IMG/VR virus record: IMGVR_UViG_3300035698_005927
Location: 1 to 23,126 of that record
From: a virus
Length of the DNA stretch: 23,126 nt
Strand: one strand, 5' to 3'
The notes beneath the pieces were generated by a model. That model saw only the letters and a list, made by a program, of their open reading frames with translations. It did not search any database and was not told the origin of the DNA. Position numbers and translations under genes: made by a program. Shown piece after piece: positions 18,098 through 22,997 of the stretch (its first letter is position 1; each line of letters starts with the position of its first letter).

Positions 18098-18691
18098 ATG
18101 AAATACATAAAAGAATATAATGAATATATAGATCCTTTTAATGAGGAGGATTGGAATGAAGTAGAACCTGATGGTACATTTCTTACATGGTTAAAGATTA
18201 ATTATCCTGATGAAGATACATGGAAAGATATAACATGGATTAATTGTTCTAATAAAGAATTAACTGATTTAATTGGTATTGATAAATTAATTAATTTAGA
18301 ATATTTATTTTGTGATAATAATCAATTGACTGAATTAGACGTTAGTAAGAATATTAAATTAAAAACTTTAACTTGTTCTAATAATCAATTAACTAAATTA
18401 GATGTAACTAAAAATATTAAATTAGAAGAATTATATTGTGATAATAATTCATTAACAGAATTAGATGTAACTAAGAGTATTAAATTAAAAGAATTATCTT
18501 GTTCTAATCAATTAACAGAATTAGATGTGACTAAAAATATTAATTTGGAAAAATTATTTTGTGATAATAATCAGATAATTGAATTAGATTTAACTAAAAA
18601 TATTGAATTAATAACTTTAAATTGTGATAATAATCCATTAAATGAATTAGATGTAACTAAGAATATTAAATTAAAACATTTTAAGAAATGA
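18098..18691 (+). CDS. Leucine-rich-repeat protein, tandem copy 1
   Basis: The 197-residue protein has an N-terminal domain (1-60: MKYIKEYNEYIDPFNEEDW, then TWLKINYPDEDTWKDI) followed by six or seven 21-residue leucine-rich repeats of the form L-x-C-D-N-N-Q-L-T-E-L-D-V-T-K-N-I-K-L. Each repeat has a Cys before the Asn-Asn pair, giving a Cys/Asn ladder; one repeat lacks an Asn (SCSNQ, about 135). LRR proteins bind other proteins. The N-terminus K-E-Y-N-E-Y-I resembles the capsid-targeting-like leaders of other genes here. The stop TGA overlaps the ATG of the next copy (ATGA, 18688-18691). There is no signal peptide, so it acts inside the cell or in the virion. Confidence 0.8.
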   Translation: MKYIKEYNEYIDPFNEEDWNEVEPDGTFLTWLKINYPDEDTWKDITWINCSNKELTDLIGIDKLINLEYLFCDNNQLTELDVSKNIKLKTLTCSNNQLTKLDVTKNIKLEELYCDNNSLTELDVTKSIKLKELSCSNQLTELDVTKNINLEKLFCDNNQIIELDLTKNIELITLNCDNNPLNELDVTKNIKLKHFKK

Positions 18692-18887: not shown

Positions 18888-19421
18888 ATGAAATATATAA
18901 AAGAATATAATGAATATGTTGATCCTTTTGATGAGGATGATTGGGATGAAGTAGAACCAGATGGTAAATTTCTTACATGGTTAAAAATTAATCATTCTGA
19001 TGAAGATACATGGAAAGATATAAAAGAAATTAATTGTGGTTATCAAAATTTAACTGATTTAATTGGAATTGATAAATTAATTAATTTAGAATATTTAATT
19101 TGTGATTATAATCAATTAACTGAATTAGATTTAAGTAATAATATTAATTTAAGAGTTTTATCTTGTTATGATAATCAATTAACTAAATTAGATGTAACCA
19201 AGAATATTAAATTAGTAGGATTATATTGCGATCATAATCAATTAACTAAATTAGATGTAACCAAGAATATTAATTTAAAATTTTTAGAATGCGATCATAA
19301 TCAATTAACTAAATTAGATTTAAGTAAGAATATTAAATTAATAGATTTATATTGTGAAAATAATCAATTAATTGAATTAGATGTAACTAAAAATATTAAA
19401 TTAAAATATTTTAATAAATGA
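18888..19421 (+). CDS. Leucine-rich-repeat protein, tandem copy 3
   Basis: A 177-residue paralogue of copy 1 with the same N-terminal domain (MKYIKEYNEYVDPFDEDDWDEVEPDG) and about five or six 21-residue repeats (LTELDLSNNINLRVLSCYDNQ and similar). It has fewer repeats than copy 1 and several substitutions at variable positions after the Cys (CDYNQ, CYDNQ, CDHNQ, CENNQ), the residues expected on the concave binding face. The two adjacent CDHNQ units look like a recent internal duplication. Its stop overlaps a truncated fourth start (ATGA at 19418). Function is unknown; binding of a host or virion protein is plausible. Confidence 0.8.
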   Translation: MKYIKEYNEYVDPFDEDDWDEVEPDGKFLTWLKINHSDEDTWKDIKEINCGYQNLTDLIGIDKLINLEYLICDYNQLTELDLSNNINLRVLSCYDNQLTKLDVTKNIKLVGLYCDHNQLTKLDVTKNINLKFLECDHNQLTKLDLSKNIKLIDLYCENNQLIELDVTKNIKLKYFNK

Positions 19422-20390: not shown

Positions 20391-21170
20391 ATGAATTCAA
20401 TGGAGAAATATGTAGATAACAATTTGTTTTCAATACTAAAAAGTAATGGTAAAAGTAAATCAATTGATGATTTTAATATTTGTGAAGAATATATTAAAAG
20501 ATTTAATGAAACCCCTTCAGTTTTAAAAATAGTTAATGATGATATAGATTTTTTTAATGTAATTATAATAAGAGAAGAATTAATAAAAATTTTTCCAAAA
20601 ATAAAATTATTATTTAAGGATTCTAGTTATTATTTAAAAAATAAACGAAATATATCTAAAAGAGAAATATGGTTAATAGATGATGGGTATATTATGGATT
20701 TAAGTATCGATAGGGCGTATTCGTTTTTTAATGATCCTAAAAATGATTTAGGTGTCGATAAATTTTTTGAATTATGTGATTATAATATTGTCGCTATTCC
20801 AAATAACACATCTAAATTTTATAATGAAGAAATTAATAAAAAATTATATCAAATTTTTGATAAATCAATAATAAAAGAAAATAAAAGATCGTCTATCGGT
20901 ATGGTTGCCATTGATAATGGAGAGTTATATGTTAAAGATTTTAGTTTTAGAAAAAATATCATTTTAAGGAATATGGATTTGCATTATGGGGATGGATTTA
21001 CTATTTTTGATAAGAAATTAATAAAAAAATTAAAAAAGGATAAAAAAGGATTAGTACTATTTCATGGATTACCTGGTACTGGTAAGTGTGTAAGAAAAAA
21101 TACAAATATTACAGTTAGGAATAAAATTACTGGTGAAATTGAAAACATTAATATATCTGATTTAATGTAG
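20391..21170 (+). CDS. AAA+ ATPase N-terminal half fused to a 27-aa N-intein
   Basis: The 259-residue product is the first half of an AAA+ ATPase cut in the middle of its P-loop. Residues 1-232 are the N-extein: an N-terminal domain, then LVLFHGLPGTGK, a Walker A motif stopping at its Lys. C233 starts an N-intein of 27 residues (CVRKNTNITV, then GEIENINISDLM), with the catalytic first Cys and block A followed by an immediate stop. ATG 20391 is chosen because the frame upstream covers the divergent promoter gap; ATG 20400 is an alternative. After trans-splicing with the product of 22125-22997, Lys232 should be joined to Thr to restore GLPGTGKT. Alone this half lacks Walker B and should be inactive. 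Confidence 0.85.
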   Translation: MNSMEKYVDNNLFSILKSNGKSKSIDDFNICEEYIKRFNETPSVLKIVNDDIDFFNVIIIREELIKIFPKIKLLFKDSSYYLKNKRNISKREIWLIDDGYIMDLSIDRAYSFFNDPKNDLGVDKFFELCDYNIVAIPNNTSKFYNEEINKKLYQIFDKSIIKENKRSSIGMVAIDNGELYVKDFSFRKNIILRNMDLHYGDGFTIFDKKLIKKLKKDKKGLVLFHGLPGTGKCVRKNTNITVRNKITGEIENINISDLM

Positions 21171-21175
21171 TTTTT

Positions 21176-21187
21176 CCATTACCAGGT
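21176..21187. repeat. Inverted near-copy of the P-loop coding sequence
   Basis: CCATTACCAGGT is the reverse complement of ACCTGGTAATGG, matching 11 of 12 bases of the P-loop codons ACCTGGTACTGG at 21071-21082. The two copies bracket the N-intein coding segment and could pair in RNA, or be a remnant of the insertion event. Confidence 0.45.
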
Positions 21188-21189
21188 TT

Positions 21190-21202
21190 TTATATATAAA
21201 TA
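21190..21202 (+). promoter_or_regulatory. Promoter-like motif of the endonuclease gene
   Basis: TTATATATAA (21190-21199) overlaps TATAAATA (21195-21202), identical to the T4 late promoter -10 consensus. It lies 12 bp before the endonuclease ATG in the short gap after the first ATPase half, so the endonuclease may be transcribed separately. Confidence 0.4.
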
Positions 21203-21214
21203 TAAAAATTTATT

Positions 21215-22123
21215 ATGAAAAAGAAACGAATAACAATATATCATGAAGATTATTGGTTGAGAAAAGGATACACGCAAGAAGAATCAATAAAAAAAATAAA
21301 ACAATGTAAAAAAGAAACATCGTGTTGGAATAAAGAATTTTGGATTAAAAAGGGATTTAATGAAAATGATGCAATTGAAAAAGTCAAAGAAAAACAATTT
21401 CAAAATCAACAAAGACGAAATAAAGAATCATATTCTACTATGTTAAATCCTTATCAAAAAGAATATTGGATAAAGAAGGGTTATACCCAAGATGAATCAA
21501 TAGAAAAAATAAAACAATGTAAGATAAAATCAAATCCTTATAACGTTTTGAGTAAAGATGATAAAGAAAAAATGTTAGATAATAGAAAGAAAACTTATTA
21601 TTCTAAGAGTGTAGAAGAAAGAAATAAGATAAATAAAAGTCGTGGAATAACAAAAGATAAATTAATTGAAAAATATGGATTATTGATTGCTAATGAAATG
21701 ACTAAAAATAGAGGAAGAAGATTAAAAAATGTATTTTTAAGATATAGTAAAATATCTAAAATGTTTTTTGATAAAATTCAAGATAAATTACCAGATATTG
21801 ATTTGTATTATGGAAATGATGAAAAATGGATAAGAAAAAATAAAAATAAAGGTTATTTTATTGATATGGTAATAGGAGAAACAAATAAAATAATTGAGTT
21901 TAATGGAGACTTTTTTCATGCAAATCCTAAACTATATCATGAAAAAAGTCTAATAAATATATCAAAAGATAAAAAATTATATGCTAAAGATATTTGGATT
22001 AAAGATAAAGAAAAAATAGATTTTTTATCAAAAGAATATGACGTTTATATAGTTTGGGAAAATGATGTTAAAACTAATATAGATAATGAAATAAATAAGT
22101 GTATAGATTTTATAAAAAAATGA
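21215..22123 (+). CDS. Free-standing homing endonuclease, Vsr/EDxHD-like
   Basis: The 302-residue protein has three copies of a DNA-binding-type helix repeat, Y/F-W-h-K/R-K-G-[YF]-[TN]-x-[DE]-[ED]-[SA]-I-x-K (13-31, 42-58, 84-102), then a helix with KLIEKYGLLIANEMTKNRGR (149-168). A C-terminal nuclease domain follows: GYFIDMVIGETNKIIEFNGDFFHANP (213-238), with D217, E228, D232 and H235 as catalytic candidates, and an end reading KDKEKIDFLSKEYDVYIVWENDV, the 'L...GY.V..IWE.D' signature of Vsr-like endonucleases. Homing endonucleases cut an intein-less allele so that the element is copied in by repair. Its position between the two halves of a split-intein gene matches the known 'fractured gene' arrangement. 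The stop is one base before the ATG of the second half, suggesting coupled translation. Confidence 0.85.
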   Translation: MKKKRITIYHEDYWLRKGYTQEESIKKIKQCKKETSCWNKEFWIKKGFNENDAIEKVKEKQFQNQQRRNKESYSTMLNPYQKEYWIKKGYTQDESIEKIKQCKIKSNPYNVLSKDDKEKMLDNRKKTYYSKSVEERNKINKSRGITKDKLIEKYGLLIANEMTKNRGRRLKNVFLRYSKISKMFFDKIQDKLPDIDLYYGNDEKWIRKNKNKGYFIDMVIGETNKIIEFNGDFFHANPKLYHEKSLINISKDKKLYAKDIWIKDKEKIDFLSKEYDVYIVWENDVKTNIDNEINKCIDFIKK

Positions 22124-22124
22124 A

Positions 22125-22997
22125 ATGATTATGGATAAGAAAATAGTTAATACAAAAATTTTGAATGATTATGAAGTGTTAAGTGAAGATGGTTGGAAAA
22201 ATATAAAAGCAATACATAAAACAATTGATTATGAAATTTATATTTTTAAAACAGAAAATAAAATGTTGGAATGTGCTGATAATCACATTGTGTTTTTAGA
22301 TGGGTATGAAAATATATATGTTAAAGATTTGAAAATAGGCGATAATATAATCACTAAGGATGGCATTGAAGAAATAATTGATATTAAAAAAACTGGATAT
22401 TATGAAGAAATGTATGATTTAGAATTAGATGATAATAATTTTAAGTATTACACAAATGATATATTAAGTCATAATACATATTATATTAGATATTTATTAT
22501 CTAAATTAACTAAAGAAGATAAAAATATATTATATTTCCCCCCATCTATGATAAATTCTATAACAGATCCAAGTTTTGTTAATTTTATTAATTCATGGAT
22601 TAATGATAATGAAAAAAGTTGTATTATATTGATAGAGGACGCTGAACCATTACTTGTATCAAGAAATAATGATGATAGAAATATGGGAATTACTAATTTA
22701 CTAAATCTAACAGATGGGGTATTGAATGATATATTTGGCATTCAGATTATTGCAACATTTAATACAGATTTGAATAGTTTAGATGACGCTCTTCTAAGAC
22801 CTGAAAGATTAATAGCTCGAAAAGAATTCAACCCCTTATCAAAAAATAGATCAATTGAATTATTTGAAAAATTAAAAATAGATAAAAATCGAGTTAAAGA
22901 CAATATGACATTAGCTGAAATATATTCTATAAAAAAGAAAAATGAAATATTATTACATGATGTTAATGATAAAAGAATTAAAATAGGATTTAATTAA
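22125..22997 (+). CDS. 117-aa C-intein fused to the AAA+ ATPase C-terminal half
   Basis: Residues 1-117 are a C-intein. It has a block B variant LECADNHIVF (H54), the following VKDLKIGDNIIT (66-77), block F MYDLELDDNNFKYY (96-109) and block G NDILSHN (111-117) with the penultimate His116 and terminal Asn117. Thr118 is the first C-extein residue and completes Walker A. The C-extein (118-290) has Walker B CIILIEDAEPLL (E171, D172), sensor 1 ATFNTD (N213) and the arginine-finger segment LDDALLRPERL (219-229, R225), typical of AAA+ ATPases of the BCS1-like type. There is no endonuclease domain within the intein. The spliced ATPase would have about 405 residues. ATG 22131 is an alternative start. 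The substrate is unknown. Confidence 0.9.
   Translation: MIMDKKIVNTKILNDYEVLSEDGWKNIKAIHKTIDYEIYIFKTENKMLECADNHIVFLDGYENIYVKDLKIGDNIITKDGIEEIIDIKKTGYYEEMYDLELDDNNFKYYTNDILSHNTYYIRYLLSKLTKEDKNILYFPPSMINSITDPSFVNFINSWINDNEKSCIILIEDAEPLLVSRNNDDRNMGITNLLNLTDGVLNDIFGIQIIATFNTDLNSLDDALLRPERLIARKEFNPLSKNRSIELFEKLKIDKNRVKDNMTLAEIYSIKKKNEILLHDVNDKRIKIGFN

What the first reader, a model, noticed from the sequence alone, without database searches (positions are those of the whole stretch)
21087..21167. Very short (27-residue) N-intein: atypical split point
Most natural split inteins break after about 100 residues, at the former endonuclease site. Here the break falls after only 27 residues, just past block A, with block B and everything else on a 117-residue C-piece. 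This resembles the rare atypically split class (AceL-TerL and VidaL types, N-pieces of about 25 residues). The 144-residue total is that of a complete mini-intein.
Basis: partly seen in the sequence, partly recalled or inferred. Interest (0 to 1): 0.75.

Follow-up and report, generated by a model that had tools for sequence, protein, structure and literature searches.

The report
Short-N split intein in phage ATPase
A phage gene for an ATP-using enzyme is broken in two by a self-splicing protein element whose first part is only 27 residues long, with a likely DNA-cutting gene sitting between the halves; the kind is known, but this one comes with an unusual flipped copy of the target sequence that may control the DNA-cutting gene.

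Summary
The 27-residue N-intein (21087-21167) is a complete natural piece. A profile built from relatives, without the window, finds it at E = 1e-12, and relatives in the same host gene stop at the same residue. The C-intein (22125/22131-22475) holds block B and everything after it; its nearest solved structures are VidaL and Cat, both atypically split. Splicing would rejoin GLPGTGK|TYYIR, the Walker A loop of a BCS1-like AAA ATPase. Among 80 homologues of this ATPase in viral contigs, 76 are uninterrupted there. A Vsr-like endonuclease gene (21215-22123) lies between the halves, a "fractured gene". The split point is not rare in this clade: 53 of 59 distinct loci with both halves found are split there, nearly all at Walker A sites of P-loop proteins.

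The new part: between the intein stop and the endonuclease start lies an inverted, slightly altered copy of the uninterrupted target site (21169-21186; 17 of 18 bases match an empty allele). The signal recurs, host-specific, at non-TerL loci and replicated in a second set of loci. It resembles the I-TevI autorepressor operator. Splicing, cleavage and repression are untested.

The parts
20391..21086 (+). N-extein: N-terminal half of a BCS1-like AAA ATPase, up to Walker A GLPGTGK
   Evidence: (42% to LR756501, residues 1-233); the ORF could also start at TTG 20265
21087..21167 (+). N-intein, 27 residues (Cys1, block A)
   Evidence: HMM E = 1e-12, window excluded from the model
21168..21170 (+). 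TAG stop of the N-half
21169..21186 (-). inverted copy of the uninterrupted Walker A target site (CCTGGTAATGGAAAAACT); candidate operator-like homing-site mimic
   Evidence: 17/18 to intein-free allele L159 (-15..+2), 15/18 to the window's own site (-16..+1); crosses the insertion point
21191..21208 (+). AT box TATATATAAATATAAAAA just before the endonuclease ATG, late-promoter-like
   Evidence: weak by itself at 23% GC
21215..22123 (+). free-standing Vsr-like (probable EDxHD) endonuclease, 302 aa, N-terminal YWIKKGYTxxES repeats
   Evidence: phrog_22677 3.1e-25; AF2 pLDDT 85, Foldseek I-Bth0305I prob 0.99 and Vsr 0.92, E-values weak
22125..22475 (+). C-intein, 117 aa (115 from ATG 22131): block B CADNHIVF to SHN
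22476..22997 (+). C-extein: Thr+1 and the C-terminal half of the AAA ATPase
   Evidence: PF00004 5.6e-05; phrog_14322 3.6e-13; 60% to LR756501

Best explanation
It is a natural, atypically split class 1 intein in a fractured phage gene. Two polypeptides are made: ATPase N-half + 27-residue N-intein, and 115-117-residue C-intein + ATPase C-half. They associate, fold into one Hint domain and trans-splice (Cys1, block B His, His-Asn end, Thr+1), rejoining GLPGTGK-TYYIR so that the Walker A loop is whole. The endonuclease gene between the halves would cut intein-free alleles at this site and so spread the whole cassette by homing. Shown here: anatomy, homology, the predicted fold of the C-piece, and empty-site alleles. 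Inferred: trans-splicing, cleavage, homing.
For: N-intein E = 1e-12. C-intein matches VidaL and CatC by sequence and fold. Catalytic residues invariant across 66 C-inteins: H52, H114, N115. Uninterrupted homologue in LR756501...HGDPGTGKTFYIRYLL. 76 of 80 viral-contig homologues of the C-extein are uninterrupted at exactly this point, 4 carry the intein. The same arrangement is found in the same host gene in L008-L010, L103, L105, L106. The endonuclease resembles 'putative VSR endonuclease' proteins lying between split intein halves in Aeromonas phage polymerase genes. 25 of 37 aligned endonuclease-position ORFs match phrog_22677.
Against: No splicing or cleavage was measured. The Pfam intein model is below its cut-off for the C-piece (13.5 against 35.8 bits), as is NCBIfam intein_Cterm (11.8 against 15.6). 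The endonuclease has no Pfam hit at 0.01, and its best Foldseek E-values are above 0.02. The two halves were not folded together.
Confidence: 0.93

Rival explanations
1. The TAG is an assembly error or a recoded codon, and the N-intein is really longer, with a canonical split or a contiguous intein.
For: One locus, L017, has in-frame stops inside its C-intein, so recoding or decay does occur in the clade.
Against: Read-through adds 15 unrelated codons and then TGA. A 302-aa endonuclease fills the gap, and the other frames of that segment hold 31 and 54 stops. N-inteins of 27-60 residues recur in 53 distinct split loci. Four same-gene relatives end at the same residue.
Confidence: 0.02
2. The cassette is a decayed relic: the halves no longer splice and the ATPase is dead.
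For: Activity is untested. Some relatives have lost the endonuclease: L078 keeps only a 72-aa fragment, and 36 of 116 split loci have no gap ORF of 150 aa.
Against: All three ORFs are open, the catalytic residues are kept and the ATPase C-half keeps its conserved blocks.
Confidence: 0.05
3. The inverted Walker A-like sequence at 21169-21186 is the 3' arm of an mRNA hairpin with the N-extein, not a homing-site mimic.
For: It is complementary to the window's own Walker A coding sequence (15/18). At some ClpB-type loci (L038, L073) the match to the actual gene exceeds that to the joined empty site (15.5 against 9.5; 20 against 14).
Against: The window copy matches some intein-free alleles better (16 against 12; 14 of 67 alleles beat its own site), and 57 of 58 alleles scoring 9 or more match across the insertion point, which no contiguous stretch of the window's transcript contains. 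Mismatches are not of the G-U-tolerant kind (5 against 11).
Confidence: 0.2

Closest known systems
AceL-TerL / GOS-TerL / Cat atypically split inteins
   Same: Short N-intein (25, 37, 30 aa; PMC11766414, passages read), block B on the C-piece; CatC matches by sequence and fold.
   Different: Those have Cys+1; this one has Thr+1, Walker A of a BCS1-like AAA ATPase as site, and an endonuclease gene between the halves.
VidaL intein
   Same: Best PDB match by sequence (6vgv, 1.7e-12) and by fold (TM 0.82); atypical split (class recalled).
   Different: 27% identity over the fold alignment; host gene not compared.
PolB16 OarG split intein (15/168 aa)
   Same: Atypical split near the N-terminus (PMC10189870, passages read).
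   Different: Ser1/Ser+1, in PolB; weak PDB profile match only (0.0052).
Fractured genes with EDxHD/Vsr-like endonucleases (Dassa 2009; Aes123 PolB)
   Same: Intein halves on either side of a Vsr-like endonuclease gene (Aes123 record; window endonuclease 29% identical over 177 columns).
   Different: Most split inteins break at the endonuclease position, about 100/40 residues (PMC11923092, passages read); here the gene lies at the S1 point. The Dassa paper is not held and is known only from recall and citations.
I-TevI operator (T4 td intron)
   Same: Sequence like the homing site (15/20) just upstream of the endonuclease ORF at a late promoter; bound, but cleaved about 100-fold less (PMC2988022, passages read).
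   Different: Here the copy is inverted, in a split-intein cassette with a Vsr-like enzyme; no binding data.

Membership tests
Atypically split (S1) intein | N-intein of roughly 15-40 residues ending between blocks A and B | tested here: met
   27 residues; HMM E = 1e-12; alignment with contiguous relatives
Atypically split (S1) intein | Homology of the C-piece to a known atypically split intein | tested here: met
   VidaL 1.7e-12, CatC 7.7e-10; Foldseek VidaL and Cat ranks 1 and 2
Atypically split (S1) intein | Trans-splicing of the two pieces | not testable with these tools
   needs expression
Class 1 intein | Cys/Ser1, block B His, C-terminal His-Asn, Cys/Ser/Thr+1 | tested here: met
   Cys 21087; H52, H114, N115; Thr at 22476
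Fractured gene with a free-standing endonuclease | Endonuclease ORF between the N- and C-intein halves of one host gene | tested here: met
   21215-22123 between the halves; host halves match the two parts of one ORF in LR756501
EDxHD (Vsr-like) homing endonuclease | Vsr/PD-(D/E)XK fold and catalytic motif | tested here: inconclusive
   Conserved D217, E228, G231 and H235 columns; Foldseek I-Bth0305I prob 0.99, Vsr 0.92, E-values 0.06-0.1; the motif name is recalled
EDxHD (Vsr-like) homing endonuclease | Cuts the intein-free allele near the insertion point | not testable with these tools
   needs a cleavage assay
Homing-site operator of the I-TevI kind | Copy of the homing site upstream of the endonuclease ORF | tested here: met
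   17/18 to an empty allele; recurrent in non-TerL loci; the homing site itself is inferred from the intein insertion point
Homing-site operator of the I-TevI kind | Overlaps the promoter of the endonuclease gene | tested here: inconclusive
   AT box 21191-21208 lies next to it; 34 of 116 leaders hold TATA[AT]A[AT]A against 12.7 +/- 3.3 shuffled
Homing-site operator of the I-TevI kind | Bound and repressed, but not cut, by the endonuclease | not testable with these tools
   needs binding and reporter assays

The most novel reading that the evidence does not exclude
In these fractured genes the Vsr-like endonuclease controls its own gene through an inverted, cleavage-resistant mimic of the very host site it attacks. 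Each cassette outside TerL would carry a mimic fitted to its own host gene, between the N-intein stop and the endonuclease start, so the leader reveals the endonuclease's target and which bases of it matter.
Probability: 0.4. Interest if true: 0.75.

Novelty: new variant of a known kind. Interest (0 to 1): 0.52.

Why it matters
The intein itself adds a Thr+1, 27-residue member to a class used for protein labelling, and shows that the atypical split is the usual state in one phage clade that sits in the Walker A loops of several unrelated P-loop enzymes. If the inverted copy is an operator, it gives a way to read a homing endonuclease's target and its forbidden bases directly from sequence, for many cassettes at once, and extends a regulation known from T4 intron endonucleases to split inteins.

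Tried and rejected
Recoded or mis-sequenced TAG: rejected. RNA hairpin for the inverted copy: disfavoured for the BCS1-like host, but not excluded for ClpB-type hosts, where the match to the actual gene is sometimes better. Recent capture of the copy from another allele is not excluded: L009's copy is 15/15 to L108. Of the eight BCS1-type loci taken singly against the 67 empty alleles, only the window and L008 exceed all 100 shuffles (16 against 14, 16 against 15); the other six do not (L009 and L010 15 against 16, L078 and L105 12 against 14, L103 13 against 16, L106 11 against 15). TerL hosts show no copy: 3 of 17 and 3 of 22 loci at p<0.05, and swapped pairs score as well. The forward-strand control in the first set was also slightly above swapped pairs (p = 0.005); in the second it was not (p = 0.47). 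Protein-level matching favours third-position mismatches by design, so the codon-position count rests on DNA-only picks: 8/11/27 against 227/211/306 in cross-family control pairs. Shuffles were single-base shuffles, and loci are related, so p-values are not independent.

Exact-peptide scan with the window C-half gave no relatives; the profile scan worked. L062, L296 and L324 first looked like in-frame endonuclease domains inside the intein; the endonuclease is in the +1 frame. Host labels were set by patterns on the flanks, not by function; L030 (ClpX-like) was first put with BCS1 and moved in later counts. The tree is the quick version; the careful search did not finish and most forks are open. 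PMC10448857, PMC3229294 and PMC7765530 were searched for split inteins with endonucleases and gave nothing beyond reference-list entries or unrelated lines.

Full report
What is there. The window is a 23,126-base virus record with a tail sheath, tail tube and PhoH-like gene, 23% GC. At its right end lie three ORFs on the + strand: 20391-21170, 21215-22123 and 22125-22997. The first ends in Walker A and then CVRKNTNITVRNKITGEIENINISDLM and TAG. The third starts with a C-intein ending SHN at 22475 and continues TYYIRYLL. Joined at protein level they give HGLPGTGKTYYIRYLL.

Is it an intein and is the split real? A profile of 48 N-inteins from relatives, without the window, hits this stretch at E = 1e-12; the next of 490 window segments has 0.38. 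The C-intein profile finds VidaL, gp41-1 and CatC in the PDB. Its AlphaFold model (66 rows, pLDDT 93) matches VidaL and then Cat. Against five contiguous relatives nothing conserved is missing. The TAG is a working stop.

How common is it? The C-intein profile found 413 relatives in IMG/VR, of which 80 were kept. With 8 named phage loci and the window (75 distinct C-inteins of 89 loci), 53 are split with N-inteins of 27-60 residues, 6 are contiguous, and in 16 no N-intein was found. L017, counted as split, has three stops in its C-intein; L062, counted as contiguous, is the dual-frame case listed in passing. In a second sample of 79 new distinct loci, 59 are split (29-57 residues), 4 contiguous and 16 without a found N-intein. 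In 56 of 57 split loci the N-extein ends in GK and the C-extein starts with T or S, the Walker A point; in L068 the insertion lies five residues earlier. By flank pattern the hosts are TerL 17, ClpB-like 12, BCS1-like 9, DnaB/gp41-like 8, gp44-like 3, other 8. Host labels cluster on the C-intein tree (36 changes against 87 shuffled) with several switches.

The host gene. Of 80 viral-contig homologues of the C-extein, 76 are uninterrupted at this point and 4 carry the intein. These four (L103, L105, L106 and L107, the last alike to L106) have 27-residue N-inteins, and the three examined have a 297-338-aa endonuclease ORF in the gap. The huge phage record LR756501 has one uninterrupted ORF matching both halves.

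The endonuclease. The 302-aa ORF belongs to phrog_22677, as do 25 of 37 aligned ORFs (34 gap ORFs of IMG/VR loci, the window's own, and those of Campylobacter phage F379 and Aeromonas phage Aes123). Its model (28 rows, pLDDT 85) resembles I-Bth0305I and Vsr, with good probability but weak E-values. Aes123 has the same order in its polymerase gene: N-intein, putative VSR endonuclease, C-intein. Of 116 split loci, 80 have a gap ORF of 150 aa or more.

The inverted copy. Between the N-intein stop and the endonuclease ATG, on the minus strand, the window reads CCTGGTAATGGAAAAACT (21169-21186). It matches the window's own site at 15 of 18 and the empty site of L159 at 17 of 18, from -15 to +2, across the insertion point. 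In 57 distinct split loci the reverse complement of the leader matches its own host site better than swapped leaders do (mean 7.32; within host family 6.30; between families 5.91; none of 20,000 permutations as high; forward strand p = 0.005). At protein level 29 of 57 loci reach p < 0.05 and 21 reach p < 0.01; TerL 3 of 17. The second sample, scored the same way with 100 shuffles in place of 200, gave 16 of 59 on the reverse strand and 3 of 59 on the forward strand; swapped-pair p = 0.0006 for 37 non-TerL loci and 0.75 for 22 TerL loci. Mismatches in DNA-only picks fall 8/11/27 on codon positions 1/2/3. For the eight BCS1-type loci taken singly, only the window and L008 beat all 100 shuffles against the 67 empty alleles.

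What it may do. The closest precedent is I-TevI, whose operator is 15/20 identical to its homing site, lies just upstream of its ORF at a late promoter, is bound equally and is cut about 100-fold less (PMC2988022, passages read). The position, the host specificity, the crossing of the insertion point and the tolerance at third codon positions fit a homing-site mimic. The AT box at 21191-21208 fits a late promoter, but the genome is AT-rich; over 116 leaders TATA[AT]A[AT]A occurs in 34 against 12.7 +/- 3.3 in shuffles. Repression, binding and cleavage are inference.

Known or new. Atypically split inteins with N-pieces of 15-37 residues are known (PMC10189870, PMC11923092, PMC11766414; passages read). 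Split inteins with an endonuclease between the halves are known (Dassa 2009, not held; MIJ3 PolB, PMC6892783, passages read). Nine paper searches showed no report of an inverted homing-site copy in such a cassette; the library lacks most subscription papers, and only listings and the passages named were seen. The finding is therefore a new variant of a known kind.

Noticed in passing
L062:3017-4345, L296 and L324 (Cys to SHN, 443-451 aa): Three TerL inteins keep one open frame from block A to SHN while an endonuclease (Vsr-like in L062 and L296, HNH-like in L324) is encoded in the +1 frame over about 300 codons: 0 stops in the intein frame against 16-19 on average (minimum 6-11 of 2000) in synonymous shuffles. 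It looks like dual coding instead of splitting.
   Followed up: partly
L007:1075-3213; L028, L031, L046, L062 downstream of the first C-intein: Several TerL genes carry a second intein or N-intein-like stretch downstream in the C-extein, so TerL would be interrupted twice.
   Followed up: no
L017:4001-4348: C-intein reading frame with three in-frame stop codons: a decayed copy or a recoded phage.
   Followed up: no
L078:3769-3984: Only a 72-aa C-terminal fragment of the endonuclease remains between the intein halves, an endonuclease-loss stage.
   Followed up: no
window 21239-21319 and 21452-21532: The endonuclease's N-terminal part is built of YWxxKGYTxxES repeats, 79% identical at DNA level between two copies; similar repeats occur across the family.
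   Followed up: no
window 18098-18691 and 18888-19421: Two neighbouring leucine-rich-repeat paralogues starting MKYIKEYNEYxDPF.
   Followed up: no
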